Positions 12,464-26,697 of a stretch of 46,819 nucleotides of DNA are shown here, one piece after another (the first letter of the stretch is position 1; each line of letters starts with the position of its first letter). The notes beneath the pieces were generated by a model. That model was not told the DNA's origin. It made no database searches and saw nothing but the letters and a program-made list of their open reading frames with translations. Both the position numbers and the translations under genes were made by a program. This DNA is from Methylothermaceae bacterium (GTDB taxonomy: Bacteria; Pseudomonadota; Gammaproteobacteria; Methylococcales; Methylothermaceae), in NCBI GenBank assembly GCA_026981855.1, contig JALSIB010000044.1, positions 1-46,819 of the forward strand, given 5' to 3'.

Positions 12464-12690
12464 CCTTCCCTCGAGCACCCAGCCCCTCTCCTGGAGAGGG
12501 GCCGGGTTAGCGTGCGATCAGACCCTTGTCACCGACAAACTCCTGCCAATTTTTGGTCTATGCTTGGTAGAACCCGTGGATTTATGTCACGATACTTCCC
12601 TGTATGTCTTAGGAACTCAGGTTGTTGGTAAATCATCCGTTTTCCCTGAACAGGCTCTTTTGCATCTATCGGGGTAGCGTGGAGGTATTT
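12464..12690. other. Intergenic gap with a GC hairpin
   Basis: These 227 bases between the GT8-like gene and the secreted-protein gene hold the hairpin at 12482-12502 and no credible coding frame. The right half is AT-richer and should contain the promoter of the downstream gene, but I could not place one confidently. GGAGG at 12681-12685 is that gene's ribosome binding site. Confidence 0.5.
12482..12502. repeat. GC-rich palindromic hairpin (REP-like or terminator)
   Basis: A perfect palindrome, GCCCCTCTCC-T-GGAGAGGGGC, lies 18 bases after the GT8-like stop. It can fold as an 8-10 bp stem with a small loop. No T-run follows, so it is not a classic intrinsic terminator. Its shape is like the short CCCCTCTCC/GGAGAGGGG elements dispersed between genes in many proteobacteria. 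Confidence 0.45.
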
Positions 12691-14019
12691 ATGAAATTCC
12701 GTAAAGTGTTTTCTTCATTCCCACTTTTCTTAATGCTTGCTTTCTCCTGTTCAGTCATGGGAGAACCAACCATCGCTGTTTTTATCGACAGCCCCATCGT
12801 GAATCCCGGTAGCGGCGAACCACCAAGCATCCATGTATCCGGGCAGGGAAGTGACGAGACAATGATTGTCGATGTCCATGTAGCCCTCCTTTCCCCCGAT
12901 GGCACGATTCACGAATACCCGGACTGGAATACGGACCTGAAACCCTGGCTGCCATCCTTTCGACTGAAATCAGGGGCCAAGGTGAATCCGATACGTCTTA
13001 CCGACCTGAACAACCTGCCTTTTGAATTGACACCTGGTAACTGGCGGTTGGCCGGGGCCATCACCAAACCCGGCACGCTGGAATTCCTGTCCCTGGACAT
13101 TCAGTCCTTCCTGGTGACCGATCAATCCACTAACGCTGAAGGCGGGTTGAGAATTGGCAACCTGACCGTCTCCGAGTTCCGAAGCGCAATTTCGACCCTT
13201 CCCACAAGCACCCCGACGATTTCATCGACCCGAAGTGCAAGCGGCACATTCATACAGATCTGTCCCAACCAGAGCTTTGGCGATACCGGTGATGAACTGA
13301 TGTCCCAGTTTCTGGACAAGCAAACAATCGATCAATGTGAAATGATCACGACCAACGATATTGATCCAGGTGAAGATCCAGGTAAGGATCCAAATACCTG
13401 CGCAGATGCGTTATTCCTCAATGCGGGCGAGAAATTGGAACTCGTTTCGGACCAGGCTGGAAGCATCGACGTGCCATTGAGCCCAAGTTCCGGGCCATCC
13501 ATGGGATTTTTTTACTTCGCCCAATTACCGGAAACGTTCTTTCAAACAGAAGCGAGATATACCTTTTCCGGCAATGGAGGCCCTGACATAGGTCCCTTTT
13601 CCACCTCCGCCACGCTGGCCCCGCTGACGGTCACAGCCCCCGATCTGCTCTCCGGTACCGCAACCCTCAACCCTGGCGCCCCTTTGGATGTGCGCTGGAA
13701 CGGCCAGGGAGGCCAGGGAACGGTCTTCGTGACTCTGACCGCCACCAAGCTGAATTTCGATATGGAATCACCTTCCAATTCGACTACGGATACCAGAACC
13801 ATTCACTGCCGCTTCCAGGATGACGGCAATGGAACAATTCCCGGAGAATTGATCGAAAAGCTGACCGGTGGCCTGGCAAGCTCCCCACCATTTTCCACGC
13901 CGATTGTGATGAGTGTATACAGACACCGCACAACTTTCTTCAATACCAACAACAATGAACTGGATTACGGGATGTATACCCTGATCAGCGGCGAAAGCGG
14001 CAGCTTACAGCTTCCCTGA
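12691..14019 (+). CDS. Secreted protein of unknown function
   Basis: A 442-residue exported protein I do not recognise. The start at 12691 follows GGAGG by 5 bases and opens a signal peptide (MKFRKVFSSFPLFLMLAFSC, cleavage near VMG-EP at about 25). The mature protein is rich in Pro, Ser, Thr and beta-type sequence. An N-terminal part (about 26-140) is followed by a middle region with CPNQSFGDTGDELMSQFLD, a short acidic Asp-Pro-Gly linker (DPGEDPGKDPNTC, about 225-237), and a C-terminal part of likely beta sandwich. The linker is encoded by a small tandem repeat. No membrane anchor follows the signal, and no catalytic motif is visible. It is probably periplasmic or extracellular. Confidence 0.7.
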   Translation: MKFRKVFSSFPLFLMLAFSCSVMGEPTIAVFIDSPIVNPGSGEPPSIHVSGQGSDETMIVDVHVALLSPDGTIHEYPDWNTDLKPWLPSFRLKSGAKVNPIRLTDLNNLPFELTPGNWRLAGAITKPGTLEFLSLDIQSFLVTDQSTNAEGGLRIGNLTVSEFRSAISTLPTSTPTISSTRSASGTFIQICPNQSFGDTGDELMSQFLDKQTIDQCEMITTNDIDPGEDPGKDPNTCADALFLNAGEKLELVSDQAGSIDVPLSPSSGPSMGFFYFAQLPETFFQTEARYTFSGNGGPDIGPFSTSATLAPLTVTAPDLLSGTATLNPGAPLDVRWNGQGGQGTVFVTLTATKLNFDMESPSNSTTDTRTIHCRFQDDGNGTIPGELIEKLTGGLASSPPFSTPIVMSVYRHRTTFFNTNNNELDYGMYTLISGESGSLQLP

Positions 14020-14108: not shown

Positions 14109-15527
14109 ATGGTAACTGATTTGAATGCTTCCAAAGCCGGCTTGCGCCTGACTTTCGATCCCTCCCTGATCAAACGTTACGACAAGGCCGGCCCCCGCTA
14201 CACCTCTTACCCCACCGCCGTCCAGTTCACGGAAGCCTTCTCCTGCGAAGATTACCTGCGGGCGGTTGAACGAAGCAACCGGGAAAGCCCCCCAAAACCC
14301 CTGTCCCTGTACTTCCACATTCCCTTCTGCGCCACCCTTTGTTTTTATTGCGCCTGCAACAAGGTCATCACCAAAAGGAAGGAAAAGGCGCTGGAATACC
14401 TCGACCGGCTCTACCGGGAAATCGAAATGCAAGGCGCCCTGTTCGACCGGCAACGGCAAGTGGAGCAACTTCATCTGGGGGGCGGTACGCCCACCTTTCT
14501 CTCACCCCCTCAACTGGAAGCATTGTTGCACCAGGTGAGACGGCACTTCAGCCTGCGTCAGGACGATAGGCGCGACTTCTCCATCGAAGTGGACCCCAGG
14601 ACTGTGGATACAGGCTATTTGCAAGCCTTGTGGGATCTGGGATTCAACCGCATCAGCCTGGGCGTTCAGGACTTCGATCCCCATGTGCAGAAGGCGGTAC
14701 ACCGCATCCAGTCACAACAGGCGACGCTTGGGCTGATCGAGGCGGCACGCCGGATCGGGTTCAGATCCATCAATACCGACCTGATCTACGGATTGCCGCT
14801 GCAGACCCTGCAAAGCTTCTCCATCACGCTCGATACCCTCATCGAGGCGGCTCCCAACCGGATTTCCCTCTTCAACTACGCCCATCTGCCGGACAGATTC
14901 CCGCCCCAGCAACGAATCAAGGCGGAAGAACTGCCTTCACCCGACGAGAAACTGGCCATTCTCCAGCGCTCGGTGGAGAAACTCAACGCCGCAGGTTACG
15001 TCTACATCGGCATGGATCACTTCGCCAGGCCGGAAGACGAACTCAACCGCGCCCGCCAGGAAGGCACCCTGTACCGGAACTTCCAGGGTTACTCGACCCA
15101 CGCCAACTGTGACCTGGTGGGGATGGGCGTGACCGCCATCGGCCAGGTGAGCGACTGCTACGTGCAGAACCACCGCACCCTGGAAAACTATTACGCCGCC
15201 CTCGACGAAGGGAAACCGGCACTGCTCAAGGGATACGCCCTAAGTCTGGACGACAAGATCCGCCGCCGGGTCATCGAGAACATCATGTGTTACGGCAGGA
15301 TCGATTTTCCCGCCATCGAGGCATCGTTCGATATCGACTTTCACGAATACTTCAGCCCCGAAGTCGAACAACTGCGAATCATGGAAGCGGACGGACTGAT
15401 CGAGCTCTCGTCCCGGGCGCTCCAGGTGCGCCCCGCAGGAAGGCTTTTGCTCCGCAACGTTTGCATGGTCTTCGACCGTTATCTCCCCCAGGCGCAGAAA
15501 ACGTCGAGATTCTCCCGCGTCATATGA
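14109..15527 (+). CDS. hemN: Oxygen-independent coproporphyrinogen III oxidase
   Basis: HemN is a radical SAM enzyme that decarboxylates coproporphyrinogen III to protoporphyrinogen IX without oxygen, for heme synthesis. The 472-residue protein has YDKAGPRYTSYPTA (about 24-37), the cluster motif HIPFC-X3-C-X2-C-X-C with C74, C78, C81 and C83, and LHLGGGTPTFL at about 122-132. The C-terminal HemN domain contains IGMDHFARPEDEL and GYSTHANCDLVGMG. These features mark true HemN rather than HemW. The ribosome site is weak. Heme supply fits the cytochrome c maturation genes later in the window, but the two are not adjacent. Confidence 0.95.
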   Translation: MVTDLNASKAGLRLTFDPSLIKRYDKAGPRYTSYPTAVQFTEAFSCEDYLRAVERSNRESPPKPLSLYFHIPFCATLCFYCACNKVITKRKEKALEYLDRLYREIEMQGALFDRQRQVEQLHLGGGTPTFLSPPQLEALLHQVRRHFSLRQDDRRDFSIEVDPRTVDTGYLQALWDLGFNRISLGVQDFDPHVQKAVHRIQSQQATLGLIEAARRIGFRSINTDLIYGLPLQTLQSFSITLDTLIEAAPNRISLFNYAHLPDRFPPQQRIKAEELPSPDEKLAILQRSVEKLNAAGYVYIGMDHFARPEDELNRARQEGTLYRNFQGYSTHANCDLVGMGVTAIGQVSDCYVQNHRTLENYYAALDEGKPALLKGYALSLDDKIRRRVIENIMCYGRIDFPAIEASFDIDFHEYFSPEVEQLRIMEADGLIELSSRALQVRPAGRLLLRNVCMVFDRYLPQAQKTSRFSRVI

Positions 15528-15597
15528 TGCCCGGCATCCTGGAACGGTTGCATCGCCGGGACTTTCTTCAGCCACTCGCCCAAGCAGAAACCGCGCC

Positions 15598-16719
15598 TCA
15601 TGGCCGCCAACCGGCGAACATCCGCCGAACCTTTTCAGCCGCCTCATCCAACTCGCCCGAAACCGGCTGAAACGTCCCGGCCACCCTTTTTTCTCCCAAC
15701 CAGACTGCTCTGCCAGAGTGGATCAGCGCCCGGTGGATTCTGCGGACATCGCGTTTCAAACGGCCTGGGGCCAGGGTCAACGCCAGTGCGCCGCGCAAGG
15801 CGCGAAGCCGTTGCCGGCTCCACAGGCTTCCGCTGACAGGTTGTGGCCTTTCCGGCCGCATCGCGAAACGGCCCCCACCCAAGGGAAAGATGTGGACCGG
15901 CTTGCCGGTGGCGCAGGCTTCCGCCAGCATCGACATACTGTCTCCGGTGACGATGAGCTCTTCCGCCAGGGCCAAAAACGCGAGGTAGGGATTGCGCCCG
16001 CTTCCGGGACGCCAGTGAAACACCCGGGCCGGCACCTCGATCGCCCGTTCCAGGGCCCGGGCGGCAGCCGGCGCGGTTCTGGCGCTGGTGCTGACGAGCA
16101 ACGACGCCCCCTTGTGTTTCGCCAGCCGGCCCGCCTCTGCCGCCAATCTGCGCGCCGCCGCCTCATCGAATGCGTAGGGACCACTGTCCCCCCCCACCAG
16201 CAAGACGACATAGGGCGCCGGAAGCGGAATCCTCGGCCGCCAGGCTGCCGCCTCCCGCTGCAGCACCTGCTCGTCCAGCCGCTGCAGTGGCAAGGTCAGG
16301 GACAAGACGTTGGGCGCATCGGGAAGCTGGTATTGAGGGGTGGTCACGATCAGATCGAAGTGCCGCAGCGGCGCCCAGGGTCTTCCCACATGGACGATTT
16401 TCACCGCCTGTCCGACTTTGGCGGCCTGCTTCCGGATCCATAACGCCACCGGCTCGTTGCGCCGGCCCGCGGTGAGAATCAAATCCGGCCAGGGCGGAGC
16501 CAGATCGTCGCTTCGCCGCCGGTCGATCCCCGCCAAAGTGGCGCCGAACCGCCCTACCAGGAGCTCATGGGGGCGATAGGACATCCGCTTGATTTCATAG
16601 GGCCAGCCCAAGGCCCCGGCGAGGGCCGACAGCTGAGTGTTGTCCCCCGCCTTGTTGCCGCACAGCAGCCAGGTCCGGGGAAATCGCAGATCATGGGAAG
16701 TTTTCCCTGTCATGGTCAT
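15598..16719 (-). CDS. ELM1/GtrOC1-like family protein (DUF1022)
   Basis: A 373-residue protein of the family named after plant ELM1 (mitochondrial fission), present in many proteobacteria with unknown function, possibly a glycosyltransferase-B relative. Hallmarks are TWLLCGNKAGDNTQLSALA near the N-terminus, LILTAGRRNEPVALWI (about 80-95), VVLLVGGDSGPYAF (about 170-183) and TGDSMSMLAEACATGKPVHI in the C-terminal half. The frame opens at a TTG (16731), but I place the start at the ATG of 16719, because the promoter -10 covers the upstream codons; an ATG at 16713 is also possible. It faces the PQQ-ABC operon head to head. Confidence 0.8.
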   Translation of the reverse strand: MTMTGKTSHDLRFPRTWLLCGNKAGDNTQLSALAGALGWPYEIKRMSYRPHELLVGRFGATLAGIDRRRSDDLAPPWPDLILTAGRRNEPVALWIRKQAAKVGQAVKIVHVGRPWAPLRHFDLIVTTPQYQLPDAPNVLSLTLPLQRLDEQVLQREAAAWRPRIPLPAPYVVLLVGGDSGPYAFDEAAARRLAAEAGRLAKHKGASLLVSTSARTAPAAARALERAIEVPARVFHWRPGSGRNPYLAFLALAEELIVTGDSMSMLAEACATGKPVHIFPLGGGRFAMRPERPQPVSGSLWSRQRLRALRGALALTLAPGRLKRDVRRIHRALIHSGRAVWLGEKRVAGTFQPVSGELDEAAEKVRRMFAGWRP

Positions 16720-16730
16720 CTCGAGGATCA

Positions 16731-16759
16731 AGTATAATTTTCCGCCATGAACCTGTCCA
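16731..16759 (-). promoter_or_regulatory. Divergent promoter with overlapping -10 elements
   Basis: On the minus strand TGGACA (16759-16754), a 17-base spacer and TATACT (16736-16731) form a near-consensus promoter for the ELM1-like gene, with a start about 5 bases before its ATG at 16719. On the plus strand a perfect TATAAT (16733-16738) overlaps it and lies 8 bases before the ATG at 16747, predicting a nearly leaderless transcript for the PQQ-ABC operon. No rightward -35 and no ribosome site were found. RNA polymerase could bind in only one direction at a time. Confidence 0.6.
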
Positions 16760-17931
16760 AACTACTTCCATTCCTGTGGATTCCGGTCCTGCTGGCACTT
16801 CCTTTGACAGCGGAAGCGGCCACCGTTCACATCGCCTTTTTGGGAAAACAGCCCGAAGACCTCCGCCCTGCCGCGGCCAATCTCGAACCGGTCCATGCCG
16901 ACATCGGCCTCCGGGGCGCCGAGTTGGGCATCGAGGACGACAACACGACCGGGCGTTTCACCGGCCAGAAATTCAAGCTCCTCGGCGCAACCCTGCATCA
17001 CGGTGAAGATCCCCGACGGGCCTTCTATTTTCTGCTCAAAGAGGGGTATCGTCACATTATCGTCAATCTGCCGGCCAGCGACATTCAGCAGATGGCGGAC
17101 ATGGAAGGCGCCGAGGCGGTGATATTGTACAATGCCGGCGCCTACGACGACCGTTTACGTGGCCGGGACTGCCGGGCCAACGTGCTGCATACCCTCCCCA
17201 GCCATGCCATGCGCGCCGACGCCTTGGGCCAGTATCTGAAGAAAAAACGCTGGGAAGACTGGTTTCTGGTTCCGGGCAAGCGGCGGCAGGATCGGTTGTT
17301 CGCCCGCGCCATCCGCCGGACCGCCAAACGCTTCGGCGTGAAACTGGTCGCGGAAAAACCGTGGACCCATGATTTCGACGCCCGCCGCACCGCCCAGGCG
17401 CTGGTCGCCACCTTCACCCAGGGCGTCGAATACGACATCCTTCTGGTGGCCGACGAGGCGGGGCTTTTCGGCGATTACTTTCCCTACCGCACCTGGCTGC
17501 CGAGACCGGTGGCCGGTTCCCAGGGACTGATCGCCACCGCCTGGCACCCGGCGCACGAACAATGGGGCGCGGTCCAGTTGCAGAACCGCTTCCGCGAGCG
17601 TGCCGGACGCTGGATGAAGCCACGCGACTATGCCGCCTGGCTCGCCGTCCGCGCCATCGGCGAGGCGGCCACCCGCACCCAAAGTGTCGATTTCGCCAAA
17701 ATCCGGGAATTTCTCCTGAGTGATCGCTTGGCCCTGGCGGGGTTCAAGGGCAGACCGCTTTCCTTTCGCCGCTGGAACGGCCAGCTGCGCCAACCGATTC
17801 TGCTCACCGGCCCCCGCGCGGTGGTGGCGGTGGCGCCGCTGGAAGGTTTTCTCCATCCGGTCGATGAACTGGACACCCTGGGCTATGACGAACGCGAATC
17901 CCTTTGCCATCTGACAAGGAAACGACCATGA
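16747..17931 (+). CDS. PQQ-associated ABC transporter, periplasmic binding protein
   Basis: This 394-residue exported protein matches the substrate-binding-like component of the ABC cassette that accompanies PQQ-dependent alcohol dehydrogenases. The signal peptide covers about 1-24 (cleavage near AEA-A). The mature part has the branched-chain-amino-acid-binding (type I periplasmic) fold pattern: VHIAFLGKQPEDLRPAAANL, GAELGIEDDNTTGRFTGQ, then EGYRHIIVNLPASDIQQMAD. Family members are characterised by co-occurrence, so the ligand is unknown. It leads a nine-gene overlapping run, ends in an ATGA overlap with the YVTN gene, and is preceded by a -10 only 8 bases upstream. Confidence 0.85.
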   Translation: MNLSKLLPFLWIPVLLALPLTAEAATVHIAFLGKQPEDLRPAAANLEPVHADIGLRGAELGIEDDNTTGRFTGQKFKLLGATLHHGEDPRRAFYFLLKEGYRHIIVNLPASDIQQMADMEGAEAVILYNAGAYDDRLRGRDCRANVLHTLPSHAMRADALGQYLKKKRWEDWFLVPGKRRQDRLFARAIRRTAKRFGVKLVAEKPWTHDFDARRTAQALVATFTQGVEYDILLVADEAGLFGDYFPYRTWLPRPVAGSQGLIATAWHPAHEQWGAVQLQNRFRERAGRWMKPRDYAAWLAVRAIGEAATRTQSVDFAKIREFLLSDRLALAGFKGRPLSFRRWNGQLRQPILLTGPRAVVAVAPLEGFLHPVDELDTLGYDERESLCHLTRKRP

Positions 17932-18887
17932 AACGATTTTTACTTGCCGCCTGTTTCGCCCTTTTGCCCGCCTTATCCCTGGCGGACACCATCGTCGTCA
18001 CTCTGGAAAAGGACAATGCCTTGGCCATCGTCGATGGCGACACCCTGACCCTGGCGAAAACCGTCAAGATCGGCCGCCGGCCACGGGATATTCACTTCAG
18101 CCCCGACTTCAAACAGATCTACGTCGCCGTCAGCGACGACGACACCATTCAGGTGCTCGATGGCGGAACTTACAAGGTCGTCGGCACGCTGCCCTCCGGT
18201 GAGGATCCGGAAACCTTCGCCATCGACCCCGAGGGCCGGCGGATGTACGTCTCCAACGAAGACGACAACCAGGTCACGGTGATCGACCTGCAGACCGGCA
18301 AGGTGGTGAAAGCCATACCCGTTGGCGTCGAGCCGGAGGGAATCGCCACCAGCCCCGATGGAAAATGGGTGATCAGCACTTCAGAAACCACCAACATGGC
18401 CCACTGGATCGACACCCGCACCCTGGAAATCGCCCACAACACGCTGGTGGATCCGCGCCCCCGGGCCGCTGCCTTCACCCCCGACAGCCAGCAGTTATGG
18501 GTCACTTCGGAAATCGGCAGCACCCTGACGATCATCGACACCGGCAGCAAGGAAATTGTCAAGAAGATCCACTTTCAGATCCCAGGCGTCACCCAGGCGT
18601 TGGTGCAACCGGTGGGGGTGATCATCGACAGCCGGCGCCGCTACGGCTACGTCGCCCTGGGGCCGGCCAACCGGGTGGCGGTAATCGACGCCCAGAAGCT
18701 GGAAGTGGTGGACTACCTGCTCACCGGCAAGCGGGTCTGGCATCTGGCTTTTTCCACCGACGGCAAGCGCCTCTACACCACCAATGGCGCCAGCCACGAT
18801 GTCACCGTGATCGATACCGAAGCCCTCAAGCCCGTCAAGTCCGTTCCGGTCGGCCATTATCCCTGGGGCGTGGCGGTCAGGCCATGA
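17928..18887 (+). CDS. PQQ-associated YVTN beta-propeller protein
   Basis: A 319-residue periplasmic beta-propeller. The signal peptide MKRFLLAACFALLPALSLA is followed by about seven YVTN-type repeats, seen as VDGDTLTLAKTVKIGRRPRD, MYVSNEDDNQVTVIDLQTGK, VVKAIPVGVEPEGIATSPDG and LYTTNGASHDVTVIDTEALK. Proteins of this kind sit in PQQ-dependent alcohol oxidation gene clusters between the binding protein and the ATPase. Their role is unknown and may involve protein or cofactor binding in the periplasm. I chose the ATG at 17928, which overlaps the previous stop as ATGA; upstream codons would spoil the signal peptide. Confidence 0.86.
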   Translation: MKRFLLAACFALLPALSLADTIVVTLEKDNALAIVDGDTLTLAKTVKIGRRPRDIHFSPDFKQIYVAVSDDDTIQVLDGGTYKVVGTLPSGEDPETFAIDPEGRRMYVSNEDDNQVTVIDLQTGKVVKAIPVGVEPEGIATSPDGKWVISTSETTNMAHWIDTRTLEIAHNTLVDPRPRAAAFTPDSQQLWVTSEIGSTLTIIDTGSKEIVKKIHFQIPGVTQALVQPVGVIIDSRRRYGYVALGPANRVAVIDAQKLEVVDYLLTGKRVWHLAFSTDGKRLYTTNGASHDVTVIDTEALKPVKSVPVGHYPWGVAVRP

Positions 18888-19615
18888 ACCCGGCCGCACT
18901 CGAAGTCAGGCACGTCAGCTTCGCCTACGGCCGCAAAAAAGCCCTGGATGATGTCTCGTTCATCGTCCCCCAGGGCTGCTGCGCCATTCTTCTGGGCCCC
19001 AACGGGGCCGGCAAGAGTACCCTTTTCAACCTCATCACCCGCCTGTTCGACAGCCGTAGCGGCCACATCCAGATCGCCGGCTTCGACAACAAAAGTCACT
19101 CGCGGCAGGCCCTGGCTCATATGGGGGTGGTGTTCCAGCAACCGACGCTGGATCTGGATCTGACGGTGGAGCAGAATCTGCGCTACCACGCCTCCCTGCA
19201 CGGCCTCGGCCGCCGCGACGCCACCCGGCGCATCGCCACCGAACTGGAACGGCTGCAAGCCATCCAATATCTGAAGACCAAGGTGCGGGCACTGAGCGGC
19301 GGTTACCGCCGCCGGGTGGAGATCGCCCGGGCGCTGCTCCATCGGCCCGCCCTGCTGCTGCTGGACGAGCCCACCGTAGGTCTCGATATTCCCAGCCGCA
19401 TGGCCCTGGTGAGCCACGTCCATCACCTGGCCGCTGAAGGCATAGGCATTCTCTGGGCCACTCACCTGATAGACGAGGTGGAAGCCTCGGATGAGTTGAT
19501 CGTTCTCCACCGGGGCCGCATCCGCGCCACCGGCATCGTCACCGACGTGATCCATCGCCTCCAGGTGACCGGACTGGGAGAAGCGTTCGAAGCGCTGACC
19601 ACGGAGGCCACCTGA
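18884..19615 (+). CDS. PQQ-associated ABC transporter ATPase
   Basis: The 243-residue nucleotide-binding subunit has Walker A GPNGAGKST (about 39-47), a Q-loop near VVFQQPTLDLD, an ABC signature LSGGYRRRVEIARAL (about 137-151) where Tyr replaces the usual Gln, Walker B LLLLDEPTVGLD (about 157-168) and the switch His in WATHLIDEVEAS. It is of the family found in the PQQ alcohol-degradation cassette and resembles exporter ATPases of the drug/NodI type. It overlaps both the YVTN gene (ATGA) and the permease (TGATG, one base). The transported molecule is not known. Confidence 0.92.
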   Translation: MNPAALEVRHVSFAYGRKKALDDVSFIVPQGCCAILLGPNGAGKSTLFNLITRLFDSRSGHIQIAGFDNKSHSRQALAHMGVVFQQPTLDLDLTVEQNLRYHASLHGLGRRDATRRIATELERLQAIQYLKTKVRALSGGYRRRVEIARALLHRPALLLLDEPTVGLDIPSRMALVSHVHHLAAEGIGILWATHLIDEVEASDELIVLHRGRIRATGIVTDVIHRLQVTGLGEAFEALTTEAT

Positions 19616-20415
19616 TGAACCTGCTGCATTACCTGCGCGCCACCGAGGCCATCATCGGCCGGGAAGTCTTGCGCTTCCTCCATCAGCGCGGCCGCTTCGT
19701 CTCCGCCCTGGTGCGGCCCCTGGTGTGGTTGTTCATTTTCGCCGCCGGATTCCGGGCGACCCTGGGCATCGCCGTCATCCCTCCCTATCAAACCTACATA
19801 TTGTACGAAGAATACATCACTCCGGGGCTGGCGGGCATGATCCTGCTGTTCAACGGCATGCAGAGCTCCCTGTCGATGGTGTACGACCGCGAGATGGGCA
19901 GCATGCGGATCCTGCTGGTTTCCCCCCTGCCCCGCTGGTATCTTCTCTCGAGCAAACTTTTGGCCAGCACCTGTGTCTCCATCCTTCAAGCGTATGTTTT
20001 TCTGGGAATCGCCTGGCTCTATGAAATCCGCCCGCCGGCCACTGGATATATCGAGGTCTTTCCGGCACTGTTGCTGGCAGGGTTGATGCTGGGCGCCCTG
20101 GGTATGTTTCTGTCATCGTTCATCAAACAACTGGAGAATTTCGCCGGGGTAATGAACTTCGTCATCTTTCCCATGTTTTTCCTCTCCACCGCCCTCTATC
20201 CTTTGTGGCGACTCCAGGAATCGAGCCCCCTTCTGGCCACCCTGGCCGAATACAACCCATTCTCCCAGGCGGTGGAACTGATACGCCACGCCCTGTATGG
20301 GCAGTTCAACCCTTACGCCTTTCTCTATACTCTGGGAGCGATGCTATTATTTATGGCTTTGGCCATTTGGGGCTACAATCCATCCAAAGGCATGATGACA
20401 CGGAGGGGCAGATGA
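19615..20415 (+). CDS. PQQ-associated ABC transporter permease (PedC-like)
   Basis: A 266-residue ABC-2 type membrane subunit with about six segments: 31-52, 60-85 region, 108-130, 140-162, 172-192 and 232-252. [23 protein letters not shown] (starting about 177) is the conserved ABC-2 permease motif. Members of this branch are annotated as alcohol ABC transporter permeases after the ped genes for phenylethanol use in Pseudomonas. With the ATPase it forms the exporter core; transport direction is inferred from the ABC-2 type. The stop overlaps the rfbB start as ATGA, tying the cassette to rhamnose synthesis. Confidence 0.9.
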
Positions 20416-21476
20416 CCCGACCCACCTGGCTGGTGACCGGCGGCGCCGGCTTCATCGGCGGCAATTTCGTCCTGCGCCAGATCGCCCGGCGGCAGGCACG
20501 CATTATCAACCTCGACGCTCTGACCTATGCCGGCAATCTCGACACCCTGGCGCCGGTGATGGAAGATGCCGATCACGTCTTCGTCCATGGCTCGATCACC
20601 GACCGCAGGCTGTTGCGCGATCTTCTGGCCACCCACAAGCCCCAGGCCATCATCAACTTCGCCGCCGAAAGCCATGTGGACCGCTCCATCGATTCTCCCG
20701 GCGAGTTCATTCATACCAACGTCACGGGAACCTTCGAACTGCTGGAAGCGGCCCGCCGGTACTGGCGCGAACTTCCGGGAGAGGAGCGCGAGGCTTTCCG
20801 CTTCCTCCACATATCGACCGACGAGGTCTACGGCTCGCTTGGGGAGACAGGAAAATTCACCGAGCAAACCCCTTACCGGCCCAATTCTCCCTACTCCGCT
20901 TCCAAGGCCGGCTCCGATCATCTGGTGCGCGCCTATCATCACACTTATGGCCTGCCCACCCTGACTACCAATTGCTCCAACAACTACGGCCCCTATCAGT
21001 TCCCGGAAAAACTCATCCCCCTGATGGTGCTCAATGCCCTGGAGGGCAGACCCCTGCCCGTCTATGGCCAGGGCCTCAACATCCGCGACTGGCTCTATGT
21101 CGAGGATCACTGCCGCGCCATTGAAAGGGTGCTGGAAGCCGGATGTCCGGGAGAGGTCTACAACGTGGGCGGCAACAATGAAAAAACCAACGTCGAAGTG
21201 GTCAGGACGATCTGCCATATCCTCGACGAATTGCTCCCCGACTCACCCCACCGCCCCCACGAGCGGCTGATCACCTACGTCCAGGACCGTCCCGGTCACG
21301 ATCTGCGCTACGCCATCGACGCCGGCAAGATCCAGCGGGAACTGGGCTGGCGACCGAAGGAAACCTTCGATACCGGCATCGAAAAAACAGTACGCTGGTA
21401 TCTCGACAACCGCGCCTGGTGCCAGCGGGTCACCGATGGCAGCTATCGCCGCGAGCGCTTGGGAGTGGCCGGATGA
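20412..21476 (+). CDS. rfbB: dTDP-glucose 4,6-dehydratase
   Basis: RfbB (RmlB) removes water from dTDP-glucose to give dTDP-4-keto-6-deoxyglucose, step two of dTDP-L-rhamnose synthesis in the cytoplasm. This 354-residue SDR enzyme has the NAD motif [11 protein letters not shown] (about 9-19), [13 protein letters not shown] (about 79-91), [12 protein letters not shown] with the dehydratase-type TDE triad (about 134-145), and catalytic YSASK at about 161-165. [18 protein letters not shown] is the substrate-binding stretch. The ATG at 20412 overlaps the permease stop by 4 bases. It is one of four contiguous rml genes. Confidence 0.97.
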
Positions 21477-22393
21477 CCAAAACGACGCACAACGGCCGGC
21501 CGGAGGCGACCCGGCGCAAGGGCATCATCCTTGCCGGCGGATCGGGCACCCGTCTCCATCCCCTCACCCACGCCGTCAGCAAGCAGCTGCTCCCGGTCTA
21601 CGACAAACCGATGATCTACTACCCCCTGGCCACCCTGATGCTGGCCGGTATCCGGGACATTCTCGTCATCACCACGCCCCATGACGCCCCGCTCTTTCAT
21701 CGCCTGCTGAACGACGGCAGCCAGTGGGGCCTGGATTTGCACTACGCGGTCCAGCCTCATCCGGGCGGACTGGCCCAGGCTTTTTTGATCGGTGAGGATT
21801 TTCTCGGCGGACGACCCAGCTGTCTGGTTCTGGGGGACAACATCTTCTACGGCCACGGTTTGACCGACCTTCTCGTCCATGCCGACCACCGCCGGGAAGG
21901 CGCCACGGTGTTCGGTTACTGGGTCAAGGATCCCGAGCGATACGGCGTGGCCTGCTTCGATCCGGATGGCAAAGTCGTCGGCCTGGAAGAGAAACCCAAG
22001 AACCCCCAATCCCACTGGGCGGTCACCGGCATCTATTTCTACGACGAAACGGTCAGCGAACTGGCCAGATCGCTGACGCCTTCTCCGCGGGGCGAGCTCG
22101 AGATCACTGACCTCAACGCCCTGTATCTGCGGCAGGACAAGCTGCATCTTGAAAGAATGGGCCGAGGCATCGCCTGGCTCGACACCGGTACCCATGAATC
22201 GCTGATGCAGGCTTCCCAGTTCATCCAGACCATCGAGCAGCGTCAGGGCCTCAAGATCTGCTGCCCGGAAGAGGTCGCCTACGCCCGGGGCTGGATCGAT
22301 GCCAGGCAGCTGGCGCGTCTGGCGGACCAATACAAGAACAACGGCTATGGCGCTTATCTCAAACAAGTCTTGGAACAAGGAGCGGTATGGTGA
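21473..22393 (+). CDS. rfbA: Glucose-1-phosphate thymidylyltransferase
   Basis: RfbA (RmlA) joins dTTP and glucose-1-phosphate to form dTDP-glucose, the first step to dTDP-L-rhamnose. The 306-residue protein has the nucleotidyl-binding loop [16 protein letters not shown] (about 16-31), the [12 protein letters not shown] substrate loop, [10 protein letters not shown] (about 122-131) and [19 protein letters not shown]. The N-terminus of about 15 residues ([15 protein letters not shown]) is longer than usual, but the ATG at 21473 overlaps the rfbB stop as ATGA. It overlaps rfbC by 7 bases. Usually feedback-inhibited by dTDP-rhamnose in this family. Confidence 0.96.
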
Positions 22394-22947
22394 AAATCAC
22401 CGAAACCCGGCTGCCGGGCGTCTTGCTCATCGAACCGGACGTCTTCGGCGATCACCGGGGCTACTTCATGGAAAGCTGGAACAGGCGGCGCTACGGGGGA
22501 GCCGGTCTCGACCGGGACTTCGTTCAGGACAACCTTTCCTTGTCACGCCGTGGAATCCTGCGCGGGCTCCACTACCAGTGGCCTCAACCACAGGGGAAAC
22601 TGGTTCAGGTGTTGCAAGGAGCGGTGTTCGACGTCGCGGTCGACATCCGCCGGGGATCTCCCACCTTCGGCCAATGGGTGGGCTACGAGCTGTCCGCCGA
22701 CAACCATCTGCAGCTCTTCGTGCCCGAGGGATTCGCCCACGGTTTCTGCGTCCTCAGCGAGCAAGCGCTGTTCGCTTACAAATGCACCGACTTCTACAAT
22801 CCGGACACCGAGCACAGCCTGCTCTGGAACGATCCGGACATCGGAATCGAATGGCCACTCACCGATCCACTGCTGTCCGACAAGGATGCCGCGGCAGCGA
22901 CCCTGAACGAGACGGGCCGGGCGGACTTGCCCCCTTACGAGGCATGA
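22387..22947 (+). CDS. rfbC: dTDP-4-dehydrorhamnose 3,5-epimerase
   Basis: RfbC (RmlC) epimerises dTDP-4-keto-6-deoxyglucose at C3 and C5. The 186-residue cupin has the family start [20 protein letters not shown] (about 14-33), [12 protein letters not shown] with catalytic His (about 53-64), [20 protein letters not shown] (about 79-98) and [10 protein letters not shown] (about 114-123). These match the complete catalytic core. It overlaps rfbA by 7 bases and rfbD by 4 bases, so all four rml products should be made from one message. Confidence 0.96.
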
Positions 22948-23852
22948 ACCCCATCCTGCTGATCGGCCAGAAGGGCCAGGTCGCCTGGGAGCTGCAACGG
23001 GCGCTGCTGCCCTTTGGCCCGGTCATCACCGTGGGCCGGGAAAGCGAGCCGGCGGTGGATTTGGCCTGCGCGGACACTTTCGTTCCCCTGCTGCGTAAAA
23101 TCCGCCCGCGCCTCATCGTCAACGCCGCGGCCTATACGGCCGTCGACCAGGCGGAAGAAGAACCGGAGCTGGCGGAGAAAATCAACGCCATCGCCCCCGG
23201 CATCCTGGCGGAAGAAGCCAAAAGGCTCGGCGCCGGCCTGATTCACTATTCGACCGACTATGTCTTTTCCGGAGAGGCGGGCAAGCCGTATCGCGAGACC
23301 GATCCGGTCGCGCCCCAGGGTGTCTATGGCCGCACCAAACTGGCGGGGGAACGGGCGATCCAGGCTGCCGGCGCCAGCCACTGGATCTTGAGAACCGCTT
23401 GGGTCTATGGCGCCCGCGGGCGGAACTTCCTCCTGACCATGCTGCGGCTGATGCGGGAACGCGAACGCATCGGGGTGGTCGCGGACCAAACCGGCTCGCC
23501 CACCTGGAGCCGCCTGATCGCCGAGGCGACCGCCCAAATGCTCGCCCGTGACCGGATGACGATAGAGAGTCATTCGGGCATCTATCATCTCACCTGCGCC
23601 GGTCAGACCCACTGGCACGGATTCGCGGCAGCGATCCGCCGCCGGGCCATCGAGCTGGATCTCCTGCCCCAAGAGGCCGCCCGGGTGGATCCCATCGCCA
23701 CCCGCGATTACCCCACAGCGGCCAGACGGCCCGGCTATTCGGTTCTGGACACCCGGCGGCTCACGGACACTTTCGCCATTCACCTCCCTCACTGGGAACG
23801 GGCGCTCGATTTGTGTCTCGAGGATCTGGCAAGCTGCCGCCCATTCCAATGA
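22944..23852 (+). CDS. rfbD: dTDP-4-dehydrorhamnose reductase
   Basis: RfbD (RmlD) uses NAD(P)H to complete dTDP-L-rhamnose, a donor for lipopolysaccharide or other surface glycans. This 302-residue SDR protein carries the dinucleotide loop LLIGQKGQVAWEL (about 5-17), IVNAAAYTAVDQAE (about 58-71), IHYSTDYVFSGEAG (about 99-112) and catalytic YGRTK (about 127-131). The loop is GQKGQV where GxxGQLG is usual, a modest change. The ATG at 22944 gives an ATGA overlap with rfbC; the open frame runs 645 bases further upstream only as an rfbA/rfbC shadow. Gene order rfbBACD differs from the common BDAC. Confidence 0.95.
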   Translation: MNPILLIGQKGQVAWELQRALLPFGPVITVGRESEPAVDLACADTFVPLLRKIRPRLIVNAAAYTAVDQAEEEPELAEKINAIAPGILAEEAKRLGAGLIHYSTDYVFSGEAGKPYRETDPVAPQGVYGRTKLAGERAIQAAGASHWILRTAWVYGARGRNFLLTMLRLMRERERIGVVADQTGSPTWSRLIAEATAQMLARDRMTIESHSGIYHLTCAGQTHWHGFAAAIRRRAIELDLLPQEAARVDPIATRDYPTAARRPGYSVLDTRRLTDTFAIHLPHWERALDLCLEDLASCRPFQ

Positions 23853-24682
23853 AACCGGATACCCCCGCGCCGCAAATGACCGACGCCGGACTGGAGGCCG
23901 CTCTGCCGGTCACCGCTTACGACGAGCATGGCCGTCCCGTCAGCCGCGATATCGCCGCGGAACGTCCGCTGACCCTTTATCTGGATCGCCGGGAAATCGT
24001 CACCCTGATGACCCTGGGAACCCAACCCGAGCTTCTGGTTCTGGGCTATCTGCGCAATCAGGGGCTGGTCAGGCAACTGAGCGACATCGCAGCCGTCCAG
24101 GTGGATTGGGAAGTGGAAGCCGCCGCCGTGACCACCCGAAGCGGCAAGACCGACGCCCTGGACGAGAAACTCCATCATCGTGTCGTCACCACCGGTTGCG
24201 GCCAGGGAACGGTGTTCGGCAGGCTGCAGGAGAATCTGCGGCAGATCCGCCTGACCCCGCCCCCCCTTCGCCAGTCCACCCTGTACGAGCTGCTCGGCAA
24301 CTTGCGGCATCACAACGAGGTGTACAAACAGGCGGGCGCCGTCCACGGCTGCGCATTGTGCCGGGGCAGCGACATTCTGTTCTTCTGCGAGGACGTGGGC
24401 AGGCACAATGCGGTGGATGCGATCGCGGGCTACATGTGGCTTCAGGACATGGAAGGCGGCGACAAGCTTTTCTACACCACCGGCCGCCTGACCTCGGAGA
24501 TGGTGATCAAGGCCGCCCAAATGGGCATACCGGCGCTGCTGTCGCGCTCAGGCGTCACTCAGATGGGATTGGAGATGGCGCGAAGAACCGGCATGATCCT
24601 GATCAGCCGCGCCAAGGGAAAACATTTCCTGGTCTACAACGGCCATGAACGCTTGATCTACGATGCCCGCCCCCGTCATTGA
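23849..24682 (+). CDS. fdhD: Formate dehydrogenase accessory sulfurtransferase FdhD
   Basis: FdhD passes sulfur from IscS to the molybdenum/tungsten cofactor of formate dehydrogenase. This 277-residue protein has the family landmarks RPLTLYLDRREIVTLMTLGT (about 39-58), ELLVLGYLRNQGLV, CEDVGRHNAVDAIAGYM (about 180-196), TGRLTSEMV and LLSRSGVT. The usual CxxC loop appears here as GCGQG (C117 only), while a CxxC, HGCALC (C168, C171), lies later where most members have HAAAL. The variation suggests a subfamily with a moved cysteine pair. The start overlaps the rfbD stop as ATGA; the end overlaps the convergent KamA gene by 7 bases. Confidence 0.9.
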   Translation: MKPDTPAPQMTDAGLEAALPVTAYDEHGRPVSRDIAAERPLTLYLDRREIVTLMTLGTQPELLVLGYLRNQGLVRQLSDIAAVQVDWEVEAAAVTTRSGKTDALDEKLHHRVVTTGCGQGTVFGRLQENLRQIRLTPPPLRQSTLYELLGNLRHHNEVYKQAGAVHGCALCRGSDILFFCEDVGRHNAVDAIAGYMWLQDMEGGDKLFYTTGRLTSEMVIKAAQMGIPALLSRSGVTQMGLEMARRTGMILISRAKGKHFLVYNGHERLIYDARPRH

Positions 24683-26055
24683 TCCGGTTTCCGCATGGCT
24701 TCGAACGCCGCCTCGAAGAAAAACCGGGGCTCCCCGAAAGCAGGCCTGAGCTGATCCAGCCAGGTGGCTTGCGGATCGAAACGGGCGAAGAACGGCCGCT
24801 GCACCCAATCGGGATCACGCCCTTGCAAGAACCGCAGCACGAACACCTTTTCCCCCTGGATCGTGGCGACCCCCTGAACCTCCACTTTTCCCGGCCCGGC
24901 ACTCATACTCGGCCCCCGGGCGGTACGCCCCAGCCCCGATACCCGTTGGACCGCCTGGCGGTAAATCTCCCAGCAACGCGCCAAAGGCACCTCGAAATAC
25001 CGCCGGGCGCCGGTGTCGCGTTCCACGAACATATAATACGGGACGATTCCCAAGGCGACCTGGGTCTGCCACAACCGCGCCCAGACACCGGGGTCGTCGT
25101 TGATATGGGCCAGCAAAGGCCCCTGGGCCCGTATCACCGCGCCCGTGGCCCGGACCCTGGCGATGGCGCGGCGCGCCACTTCCGTTTCCAGCTCGCGCCA
25201 GTGATTGTAATGGGCCATCAGGGCGACATGCTTTCCCCCCGCCACCAGTTTCTCCAGCAGGCGCAACATATCGTCGGCATCCGGATCGGTCAGATAGCGA
25301 TAGGGCCAAAAACTCAACGACTTGGTTCCGATCCGGAGGGTGCGGAGGTGATCGAATTCAGGCGTCAACAAGGGTTCCAGATAATCCGCCAGGTGCCGGG
25401 TTTTCATCACCATGGGATCACCACCGGTGATCAGCAGGTCGGTGACCTCACGATGACGGCGCAGATAGTCATGGAGCGTGCCCGCTTCCCGGGTTGCCAT
25501 CCGCAAGGACTTGTCGCCGATGAACTGAGCCCAGCGGAAACAAAAAGTGCAATAACTGTGGCAGGTCTGGCCCTGGCTGGGAAAAAACAGCACCGTCTCG
25601 CGATATTTGTGCTGCAGGCCGGTGAGGGGCTCACCCTGCTGACCGCGGGGAATATTGAGTTCCAATTGACCTGCCGGATGAGGGTTGAGGGCCAGCCGGA
25701 TCCCCTCCACCCGCCGGCGCAATTCCGCCGGCGGCGCATCGCCGGCCAGCAGATCGGCGACAGCGGCGAAATCACCGGGATCCAACATGCCGGGTTGAGG
25801 AAACACCAGTTGGAAAAGGGGATCGTCCGGCACCTTCTCCCAGTCGATCAACTCCTCCACCACATAGCGGTTGACCCGGAAAGGAAGCACATGGGCCACC
25901 ACGCTCATGGCGTCACGCAAATCTCTCGAAACAGCCGCCAACGGGGCGATTCGTCCCTGCTCCAGATCCCGCAAGGTGTAGATTTCCAGGGCGGGACCTT
26001 GCTGCGATCGGGGGTAGCGCTGCGCCACTGCAGCAGATTCACTTTTGGCGTTCAC
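24676..26055 (-). CDS. KamA-family radical SAM protein (lysine 2,3-aminomutase-like)
   Basis: A 459-residue radical SAM/PLP protein. The cluster motif is C165-X3-C169-X2-C172 (TCHSYCTFCFRW), followed by ITGGDPMVMKT (about 209-219) and the aminomutase-like LRIGTKSLSFWPYRY (about 240-254). A PLP lysine candidate is K390 in AGPGKVEVQG, the site matching the GGGGK of lysine 2,3-aminomutase. It is longer than EpmB (about 340), so a beta-lysine- or other amino-acid-mutase role is likelier than EF-P modification, but the substrate is unknown. The start is a GTG at 26055 with only a weak ribosome site; the next ATG is too far in. Confidence 0.85.
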   Translation of the reverse strand: MNAKSESAAVAQRYPRSQQGPALEIYTLRDLEQGRIAPLAAVSRDLRDAMSVVAHVLPFRVNRYVVEELIDWEKVPDDPLFQLVFPQPGMLDPGDFAAVADLLAGDAPPAELRRRVEGIRLALNPHPAGQLELNIPRGQQGEPLTGLQHKYRETVLFFPSQGQTCHSYCTFCFRWAQFIGDKSLRMATREAGTLHDYLRRHREVTDLLITGGDPMVMKTRHLADYLEPLLTPEFDHLRTLRIGTKSLSFWPYRYLTDPDADDMLRLLEKLVAGGKHVALMAHYNHWRELETEVARRAIARVRATGAVIRAQGPLLAHINDDPGVWARLWQTQVALGIVPYYMFVERDTGARRYFEVPLARCWEIYRQAVQRVSGLGRTARGPSMSAGPGKVEVQGVATIQGEKVFVLRFLQGRDPDWVQRPFFARFDPQATWLDQLRPAFGEPRFFFEAAFEAMRKPDQ

Positions 26056-26082
26056 GCTCGTTCTTAAACCATAAAATACATT

Positions 26083-26091
26083 AGTATATCA
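26083..26091 (-). promoter_or_regulatory. Extended -10 promoter for the KamA-like gene
   Basis: On the minus strand TGATATACT (TG, one base, TATACT) lies about 28 bases before the GTG start at 26055. A typical start site would leave a leader of about 21 bases. No -35 match was found, as is common with extended -10 elements. Confidence 0.45.
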
Positions 26092-26199
26092 TTTTGTCCA
26101 TCGAGGCTTCTTCACCACTGAAACAGCGCCGTGAACCGCCGGCTCAGAGAGAAGCGCCCTTGCGAAGACAATTGCGCTTGCGTTTCATACAACATCCAC

Positions 26200-26228
26200 T
26201 TGCATTGGGTTGATGGTTCCCCTAGAAT
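26200..26228 (+). promoter_or_regulatory. Sigma-70 promoter for rplM-rpsI
   Basis: TTGCAT (26200-26205), a 17-base spacer and TAGAAT (26223-26228) match the consensus at 4 and 5 positions with ideal spacing. The start should be near 26235, giving a leader of about 34 bases to rplM with an AAGGAG ribosome site. Confidence 0.7.
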
Positions 26229-26268
26229 ACCCGGTTTATTCAGCCCCCCATAGATCGTAAGGAGTACA

Positions 26269-26697
26269 ATGAAGACCTTTAGCGCCAAACCACACGAAGT
26301 AAAACGCGACTGGTATCTCATCGACGCCGAAGGAAAGACATTGGGGCGTCTGGCCAGCGAAATCGCCCGGCGCTTGCGGGGCAAGCACAAACCCGAATAC
26401 ACCCCCCACGTGGATACCGGCGATTACATCATCGTGATCAACGCCGAAAAGGTCCGCGTCACGGGACGCAAGGAAGAACAGAAAACCTATTACCGGCACA
26501 GCGGTTATCCAGGCGGCATCAAGTCCATCACCCTTGGAAAACAGCGGGCCAGCCACCCGGAAAGAATCATCGAAAGCGCCGTGCGTGGCATGTTGCCGAA
26601 GAATCCCCTCGGACGCGCCATGTTCCGCAAACTGAAGGTTTACGCCGGCCCCGAACACAACCATCATGCCCAGCAACCCAAAGCATTGGAACTGTAA
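26269..26697 (+). CDS. rplM: 50S ribosomal protein L13
   Basis: L13 is an early-assembling 23S rRNA-binding protein of the large subunit. The 142-residue length is the family norm. Typical stretches are [20 protein letters not shown] at the start, [20 protein letters not shown] (about 24-43), [19 protein letters not shown] and [26 protein letters not shown] stands 7 bases before the ATG. It is followed after 10 bases by rpsI, the near-universal bacterial pair, and a promoter lies upstream. Autoregulation by L13 is known in E. coli, but no leader structure was evaluated here. Confidence 0.98.

What the first reader, a model, noticed from the sequence alone, without database searches (positions are those of the whole stretch)
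16747..24682. Nine-gene overlapping operon joins PQQ-alcohol ABC cassette, dTDP-rhamnose synthesis and FdhD
All nine genes overlap the next by 1-7 bases, so they are very likely made from one transcript with coupled translation. The combination is unusual: a periplasmic alcohol-oxidation-associated exporter, a complete surface-sugar pathway, and a formate dehydrogenase maturation factor. Alcohol and formate oxidation are linked steps of C1 metabolism. The rhamnose genes may supply a sugar for an exported molecule handled by the ABC exporter. This link is inference.
Basis: partly seen in the sequence, partly recalled or inferred. Interest (0 to 1): 0.6.

Follow-up and report, generated by a model that had tools for sequence, protein, structure and literature searches.

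The report
Lanthanide-transport operon carrying rhamnose genes
In a methane-oxidising bacterium, genes of the kind that bring rare-earth metals into the cell are locked into one operon with the genes that make the sugar rhamnose, an old pairing shared by several related families, while the ninth gene (fdhD) was joined on more recently by a rearrangement.

Summary
In detail: nine same-strand genes at 16747-24682, each overlapping the next by 1-7 bases. Three corrections. (1) The 'PQQ-alcohol ABC exporter' belongs to the family of PedA1A2BC and LutABEF, which experiments elsewhere treat as lanthanide importers (PMC6839425, PMC7391723, passages seen). Its binding protein is in 198 of 201 sampled genomes of the order, own included. 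(2) The cassette-rmlBACD join is not chance: it recurs, often with 4-base overlaps, in the genus and two other families, and a TATAAT precedes the first gene in 8 of 8 genus relatives examined. The full set is missing from all 14 f3 and 5 f4 loci fetched, so it is an old linkage, not a requirement. (3) fdhD is a late arrival. Six genus relatives carry mobA-fdhD beside kamA, this genome's mobA lies on another contig in that old neighbourhood without fdhD, and one other genome shares rmlD-fdhD. The methanol-formate rationale for fdhD is not supported. Whether rhamnose and lanthanide transport are functionally linked is open but testable: a published Methylococcus CRISPRi screen lists an ABC binding protein, MCA1278, that I infer is this cassette's first gene.

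The parts
16733..16738 (+). TATAAT box before the operon; in relatives it follows a G-rich GGAT.GG-type stretch
   Evidence: present upstream of the first gene in the window and 8 of 8 genus relatives examined; only TATAAT on + strand in 16700-24690
16747..17931 (+). periplasmic substrate-binding protein (LutA/PedA1-like, TIGR03863)
   Evidence: 496.4 bits vs cut-off 413.6
17928..18887 (+). YVTN beta-propeller protein (PedA2-like, TIGR03866; LutB by inference)
   Evidence: 460.8 bits vs 287.3; 4-base overlap
18884..19615 (+). ABC ATP-binding subunit (LutE/PedB-like, TIGR03864)
   Evidence: 343.4 bits vs 302.25; 4-base overlap
19615..20415 (+). ABC-2 type permease (LutF/PedC-like, TIGR03861 'phenyl_ABC_PedC')
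   Evidence: 407.6 bits vs 241.35; 1-base overlap
20412..21476 (+). rmlB, dTDP-glucose 4,6-dehydratase
   Evidence: TIGR01181 500.9 bits; 4-base overlap
21473..22393 (+). rmlA, glucose-1-phosphate thymidylyltransferase
   Evidence: TIGR01207 491.6 bits; 4-base overlap
22387..22947 (+). rmlC, dTDP-4-dehydrorhamnose 3,5-epimerase; the only rmlC match in the genome at E <= 1e-30
   Evidence: 7-base overlap (4 if GTG start)
22944..23852 (+). rmlD, dTDP-4-dehydrorhamnose reductase
   Evidence: TIGR01214 330.4 bits; 4-base overlap
23849..24682 (+). fdhD, formate dehydrogenase accessory protein with a single Cys (GCGQG) in place of CXXC; recent addition to the operon; only fdhD match in the genome
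   Evidence: start Met-Lys-Pro shared with G407
15598..16731 (-). divergent ELM1-like gene (PF06258), neighbour of the operon in 8 of 8 genus loci that cover the place
24676..26055 (-). KamA-family radical SAM protein, convergent with fdhD; marks the ancestral fdhD neighbourhood

Best explanation
This is the lanthanide-transport (Lut/Ped-type) operon of a methanotroph. In this lineage and in several related families it is fused head-to-tail with the whole dTDP-L-rhamnose pathway, and in the window's lineage fdhD was later attached by a chromosomal rearrangement. Proposed working: one promoter before the binding-protein gene drives one transcript, with translation coupled through ATGA overlaps (inferred). 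The binding protein, propeller, ATPase and ABC-2 permease move Ln3+ (free or chelated) from periplasm to cytoplasm to supply and signal for XoxF (by family, inferred). RmlBACD, the genome's only rmlC-containing set found, make dTDP-L-rhamnose for envelope glycans, so envelope sugar and lanthanide transport are co-expressed (co-expression inferred; a shared function is not shown). FdhD loads and sulfurates the bis-MGD cofactor of the cytoplasmic FDH encoded beside xoxF on another contig (by family, inferred). Its place in the operon is a by-product of the rearrangement.
For: Four-for-four family and gene-set match to pedA1-A2-B-C (set described in PMC6839425, passages seen). Binding protein in 198 of 201 order genomes (own included) and 20 of 369 genomes of a class-wide draw (own and 3 others of the order included). 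Own genome has a XoxF-type MDH (WDFDG; 742 bits) and an MxaF-type MDH (WDYAG; 685 bits), cut-off 480 (the reading of the motif is recalled). Lut-rml linkage in the genus: 5 full + 1 cut by the contig end, of 7 assessable relatives; family f2: 6 full + 1 cut, of 10 loci fetched before rml positions were known; f186 1 of 1. Permease and rmlB trees give broadly the same groups. Conserved TATAAT. Rearrangement: left block collinear with L083/L085 up to rmlD, right block collinear with L157/L158 from fdhD, own mobA block on contig C60 collinear with L157/L158 minus fdhD.
Against: No transcript data. No lanthanide-binding test of these proteins, and no solved relative of the binding protein or permease by sequence. 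The permease belongs to the ABC-2 family, whose other named members (DrrB, NodJ, KpsM) are exporters, so direction in this lineage is assumed from the literature. In f4 the cassette is followed instead by miaB and other housekeeping-type genes and in f3 by unknown genes, so the partner is changeable. No rml gene follows the cassette in 45 of the 56 assessable named loci. In 3 of 10 f2 loci and both f185 loci the permease is not even next to the binding protein.
Confidence: 0.8

Rival explanations
1. The cassette in these methanotrophs exports or flips a rhamnose-containing molecule (envelope glycolipid or a rhamnosylated lanthanide chelator), and RmlBACD supply its sugar; lanthanide uptake is an indirect consequence.
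For: Permease is ABC-2 type with DrrB, NodJ and KpsM among the next named families; conserved lut-rml linkage with 4-base overlaps across families; MCA1278, an ABC binding protein of Methylococcus capsulatus, is depleted in a CRISPRi screen on methane in a medium for which I found no lanthanide mentioned in the main text and in which guides to the Ca-MDH gene MCA0779 were also depleted (PMC13108547).
Against: No glycosyltransferase in the operon; no full rml set behind the cassette in 14 of 14 f3 and 5 of 5 f4 loci fetched; a binding protein argues for import (argument of PMC6839425); lut mutants show La deposits in the periplasm (PMC7391723). The MCA1278 effect could be polar repression of rml, MCA1279-1282 do not occur in that paper's main text, and MCA1278 was not matched by sequence here.
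Confidence: 0.12
2. Neutral fossil (compatible with the best explanation, but denying any shared function): lut and rml became adjacent in an ancestor, overlapped, and have been inherited together without a common role.
For: Other families carry quite different genes at the same place, and partial remnants exist (rmlB only in G249 and G374 and in L211; rmlD only in G373); toxin-antitoxin-like and nuclease-like genes sit inside the operon of some relatives.
Against: The permease-rmlB join with a 4-base overlap is kept in 5 of 5 measured genus relatives and 5 of 9 measured f2 genomes, which is long for a neutral arrangement; but overlapping operons resist break-up for mechanical reasons, so this is weak.
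Confidence: 0.4
3. fdhD was recruited to the operon because formate and methanol oxidation need co-regulation.
For: FDH alpha and a NuoE/F-like subunit lie directly upstream of xoxF in this genome; in M. capsulatus cerium lowers FDH transcripts (PMC10728633, passage seen); G407 keeps rmlD-fdhD with a 31-base gap.
Against: Only 2 of 10 sampled genus genomes have it; 6 keep mobA-fdhD; 1 has only another fdhD type; 1 not examined. FdhD is a maturation factor needed whenever FDH is made (established knowledge).
Confidence: 0.1
4. The rmlD-fdhD join is an assembly error.
For: The genome is in 60 contigs.
Against: G407, whose FdhD is 82% identical and so very likely a different species, has rmlC-rmlD-fdhD-kamA-rplM in one contig.
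Confidence: 0.03

Closest known systems
PedA1A2BC of Pseudomonas putida KT2440 (PMC6839425, passages seen)
   Same: Same four protein types (binding protein, YVTN propeller, ATPase, permease); TIGR03861 is named for PedC
   Different: No rml or fdhD mentioned in the passages seen; host is not a methanotroph; not compared residue by residue here
Lut system of Methylorubrum extorquens AM1 (PMC7391723, passages seen)
   Same: Binding protein LutA, exported protein LutB, ATPase LutE and membrane subunit LutF; required for or aiding La-dependent growth
   Different: The lut genes there also include lutG and a TonB receptor lutH; neither is in the window operon, and 'rhamnose' has 0 hits in the main text
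rmlBACD dTDP-L-rhamnose operons
   Same: Complete four-enzyme pathway, all over curated cut-offs
   Different: No rhamnosyltransferase or other glycan gene among the nine; coupled to a metal-transporter cassette instead
FdhD proteins without CXXC (PMC6239281; PDB 2pw9)
   Same: GCGQG with one cysteine; best solved relative 2pw9 (E 1.9e-29) is aligned there with GCG and no second Cys, and scores better than E. coli FdhD 4pde (E 3.9e-13)
   Different: Lack of a conserved CXXC in the family is already published (abstract and passages); here found in a lut-rml operon

Membership tests
Lut/Ped lanthanide transporter | binding protein, propeller, ATPase and permease of TIGR03863/3866/3864/3861 in one operon | tested here: met
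Lut/Ped lanthanide transporter | co-occurrence with a Ln-dependent PQQ alcohol dehydrogenase | tested here: met
   XoxF-like WDFDG protein over the TIGR03075 cut-off; meaning of the motif recalled
Lut/Ped lanthanide transporter | residue-level similarity to LutABEF or PedA1A2BC themselves | not tested
   those sequences were not fetched; assignment rests on family models and gene set
Lut/Ped lanthanide transporter | needed for Ln uptake and Ln-dependent growth | not testable with these tools
   shown for other species only (PMC7391723, PMC6839425)
dTDP-L-rhamnose pathway | RmlA, B, C and D all present over curated cut-offs | tested here: met
ABC-dependent O-antigen/polysaccharide export locus | export permease/ATPase with sugar genes and glycosyltransferases in one locus | tested here: not met
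   sugar genes present, but no glycosyltransferase among the nine genes, and permease and ATPase score best in the PQQ/Ped families
FdhD | PF02634 over gathering score | tested here: met
FdhD, NCBIfam equivalog TIGR00129 | over curated cut-off | tested here: not met
   134.5 vs 140.9 bits
FdhD, canonical | CXXC motif | tested here: not met
   CGQG; PMC6239281 states CXXC is not conserved in the family, so family membership stands
FdhD | a metal FDH client in the genome | tested here: met
   TIGR01591 773.8 bits vs 666.25 on contig C38

The most novel reading that the evidence does not exclude
In Methylococcales the Lut-type ABC-2 cassette has a role tied to the cell envelope or to a rhamnosylated lanthanide ligand: it handles a rhamnose-containing molecule made with the co-transcribed RmlBACD. 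This would explain an ABC-2 (exporter-type) permease with a binding protein, the old lut-rml linkage, and why repressing the probable first gene (MCA1278) hurts growth on methane while the calcium methanol dehydrogenase is in use.
Probability: 0.1. Interest if true: 0.75.

Novelty: new variant of a known kind. Interest (0 to 1): 0.42.

Why it matters
How lanthanides cross the inner membrane, and how an ABC-2-type permease with a binding protein would import, is to my reading unsettled. A conserved, overlapping partner pathway gives a concrete lead: test whether envelope rhamnose or a rhamnosylated ligand takes part. I found no paper linking rml or dTDP-rhamnose with lanthanides in the searched open library. 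Searches: lanthanide/methanotroph/rhamnose/TonB, at least 3 terms: 47 papers, 20 listed; rhamnose occurs in 2 of the 20: PMC6839425, where it is an inducible vector, and PMC8706344, not opened; rmlB/lanthanide/methanol dehydrogenase/Methylococc, at least 2 terms: 436 papers, 15 listed, rmlB count 0 in all 15; dTDP-rhamnose + lanthanide: 0 papers. Most subscription papers are not covered. The fdhD part matters less: it shows a curious operon member arising by rearrangement.

Tried and rejected
Chance juxtaposition of lut and rml: rejected by recurrence across families. FdhD as a functional operon member: rejected as the default reading by the breakpoint comparison. Assembly chimera at rmlD-fdhD: made unlikely by G407. 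FdhD CXXC loss as novel: already published (PMC6239281, abstract and passages). RNA element in 15500-26300: no Rfam match at gathering scores. Sigma-70 and terminator consensus scan: 2 promoter-like sites vs 1.9 in shuffles, 11 terminator-like vs 8.5. Solved structures for the binding-protein profile and the permease: none. The published lanthanome survey of methanotrophs (PMC12482762) gave 0 hits for lutA, lutF, YVTN and operon in a term search (not read in full). Capsule or rhamnose literature for Methylococcus: nothing useful in the listing or passages. Structure prediction was not used: it would not decide import versus export.

Slips of mine: the entry for the second methanol dehydrogenase (L009) was read on the wrong strand and matched nothing; its identity rests (684.6 bits) and the motif. 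In one search only 7 of 29 FdhD loci gave a hit at E <= 1e-20; the motif statement rests on those 7 plus the window. My simple ORF caller sometimes picked the wrong strand in GC-rich genes; neighbour calls rest on tblastn with the window's proteins, not on that caller.
Full report
What is there. The window is one whole contig (C44, 46,819 bases) of a 2.75 Mb genome in 60 contigs, 99% complete. Nine + strand genes run from 16747 to 24682 with overlaps of 4, 4, 1, 4, 4, 7, 4 and 4 bases. NCBIfam and Pfam name them as binding protein (TIGR03863), YVTN propeller (TIGR03866), ABC ATPase (TIGR03864), ABC-2 permease (TIGR03861, 'phenyl_ABC_PedC'), RmlB, RmlA, RmlC, RmlD and FdhD. All pass curated cut-offs except that FdhD is just under the NCBIfam one (134.5 vs 140.9) while far over Pfam's. 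A divergent ELM1-like gene precedes and a convergent KamA-like gene follows.

What the cassette is. The four-gene set is the family of PedA1A2BC (P. putida) and, by the similarity reported in PMC6839425, of the Lut ABC genes of M. extorquens. In the papers (PMC7391723, PMC6839425, PMC12997753; passages seen) loss of these genes blocks or slows lanthanide-dependent growth, raises the La needed about 100-fold, or leaves La deposits in the periplasm, and the authors conclude uptake into the cytoplasm. I did not align residues with those proteins; the assignment rests on the family models and the gene set. The binding protein is found in 198 of 201 sampled genomes of the window's order, own included, and in 20 of 369 of a draw from the class, own and three others of the order included. 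Named records from a GTDB scan point to the Methylothermaceae: three contigs labelled Methylothermaceae bacterium match at 72-86% identity, and their lengths equal those of contigs of genus genomes G395, G399 and G403. The same genome has two methanol dehydrogenases over the TIGR03075 cut-off: one with the XoxF-like WDFDG (contig C38, directly behind an FDH alpha and a NuoE/F-like subunit) and one with the MxaF-like WDYAG (contig C26) (the motif rule is recalled). So lanthanide transport makes sense here; 'exporter' does not follow.

Is lut-rml real and old? Loci were compared by tblastn with the window's proteins. Genus (9 sampled relatives): full lut-rmlBACD in G372, G377, G383, G387 and G395; rmlB begun at the contig end in G403; not linked in G391, where rmlBAC lie on another contig; not assessable in G399 and G407. 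Family f2: of 10 loci fetched before I knew rml positions, 6 full (G136, G382, G437, G428, G390, G410), 1 cut after rmlB (G467), 3 without (G376, G422, G394; in these the permease is not beside the binding protein either). Nine further f2 loci are all full, but 8 of them were fetched because rmlC lay near. f186: 1 of 1. f3: 0 of 14 full, with rmlB alone in G249. f4: 0 of 5, with miaB-phoH-ybeY-corC-lnt-like genes instead (miaB checked, the others named by eye). f184: rmlB (51% identical) in G374, 1 fetched. f185: 0 of 2. f187: rmlD in G373, followed by the miaB set; G379 ends before the permease. Class genomes outside the order: 0 of 12 fetched, some cut by contig ends. Among 80 named loci (partly the same genomes): 7 full, 3 rmlB only (one cut by its contig end), 1 rmlD only, 45 none, 2 with rmlB begun at a contig end, 6 contig ends, 16 without a permease in reach. 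Overlaps at homologous junctions recur: permease-rmlB is -4 in all 5 measured genus relatives and in 5 of 9 measured f2 genomes; in G371 (f186) it is a 50-base gap (start choice leans towards overlaps). FastTree trees of permease and rmlB show the same main groups: the genus, G249 with L211, G371 with G374. The f184 rmlB sits on a long branch, and f2 is not one clade in either tree, with low supports. An old, vertically kept linkage with several losses or partial decays is the simplest reading; repeated capture is not excluded.

Promoter. A TATAAT at 16733-16738 is the only one on the + strand in 16700-24690, and a TATAAT in similar G-rich context lies upstream of the binding-protein gene in 8 of 8 genus relatives examined (G407 has no binding-protein hit and was not included). 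Against it: the consensus scan found none on this strand, no good -35 goes with it, and it lies so near the ATG that the transcript would be leaderless or the true start codon lies further down.

Where fdhD came from. In G372, G383, G377, G391, G395 and G399 fdhD follows a mobA-like gene and faces kamA; in four of these rplM-rpsI-ccmB come next. In the window's genome mobA lies on contig C60 in a block collinear with G372 and G383 but without fdhD, while C44 is collinear with the lut block up to rmlD and with the fdhD-kamA-rplM-rpsI-ccmB block after it. Window genes at 12622-14019 and 14109-15527 have no counterpart in the fetched genus loci. G407 has rmlC-rmlD-(31 bases)-fdhD-kamA-rplM, with FdhD 82% identical, so the join probably predates the split of these two and the 4-base overlap is not shared. 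G387 has only another FdhD type (29% identical, CXXC-containing) and G403 was not examined. FdhD here reads GCGQG where E. coli-type proteins have CXXC. That is a published variation (PMC6239281, abstract and passages), and the best solved relative, 2pw9, also lacks the second Cys in the alignment shown.

A possible functional handle. A CRISPRi screen in Methylococcus capsulatus Bath (PMC13108547; section 8 read in full, the rest by term search) lists 'ABC transporter substrate-binding protein MCA1278' at -2.15, 30th of the 33 depleted genes in its Table 1, and also reports negative scores for guides to the calcium MDH gene MCA0779. MCA1279-1282 do not occur in the main text. In the main text 'lanthan' occurs only in two reference titles, and cerium and xoxF not at all; the medium's full recipe was not seen. 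The 2004 genome paper (PMC517821, passages) names MCA1278 and MCA1279 as conserved genes shared with M. extorquens in methanotrophy gene islands. I infer, without sequence proof, that MCA1278 is this binding protein. If so, either the repression is polar onto rml, or the cassette matters without added lanthanide. CRISPRi does not tell them apart, and the supplementary tables were not open to me. In the same species cerium lowers an FDH and an adjacent ABC transporter, MCA2576-2580 (PMC10728633, passage); by number this is a different locus.

Verdict. Real operon, correctly read in outline. A known transporter family in a conserved fusion with dTDP-rhamnose synthesis that I did not find described; fdhD is a late, probably incidental passenger.

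Noticed in passing
L084 9045-9660 and 10660-11454; L090 7343-8622; L171 6932-8683 (minus strand); L170 9069-10065: In relatives, toxin-antitoxin-like or nuclease-like genes sit between the lut genes: NTP_transf_2 + HepT-like pairs (G377, G403), RHH + PIN (G403), NERD protein (G377), AAA_15/AAA_21 ATPase (G451), two unknown ORFs in G457, one tested without a Pfam match.
   Followed up: partly
L032 5014-11455 (G000 C38): NAD-type FDH (NuoE/F-like subunit 561 aa plus FDH alpha 925 aa) lies directly upstream of the XoxF-type methanol dehydrogenase gene.
   Followed up: partly
f4 loci L070, L096, L098, L099, L102 and f187 locus L093: In other families the same cassette is followed by miaB-phoH-ybeY-corC-lnt-like housekeeping genes (miaB checked in one locus, others by eye), so the cassette can head unrelated operons.
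   Followed up: partly
f3 loci such as L116 5804-7381 (minus strand): A 520-530 aa protein family (one member tested, no Pfam match) lies downstream of the permease in 8 fetched f3 loci, in 7 of them with a 160-200 aa second gene family.
   Followed up: no
window 11519-12463: A 314 aa protein with no Pfam or NCBIfam match, conserved at 76-84% in the 7 genus loci that cover it, lies on the far side of the ELM1-like gene.
   Followed up: no
L184: A contig labelled Methyloversatilis universalis carries the f2-type lut-rml operon, so the record is probably mislabelled or misbinned.
   Followed up: no
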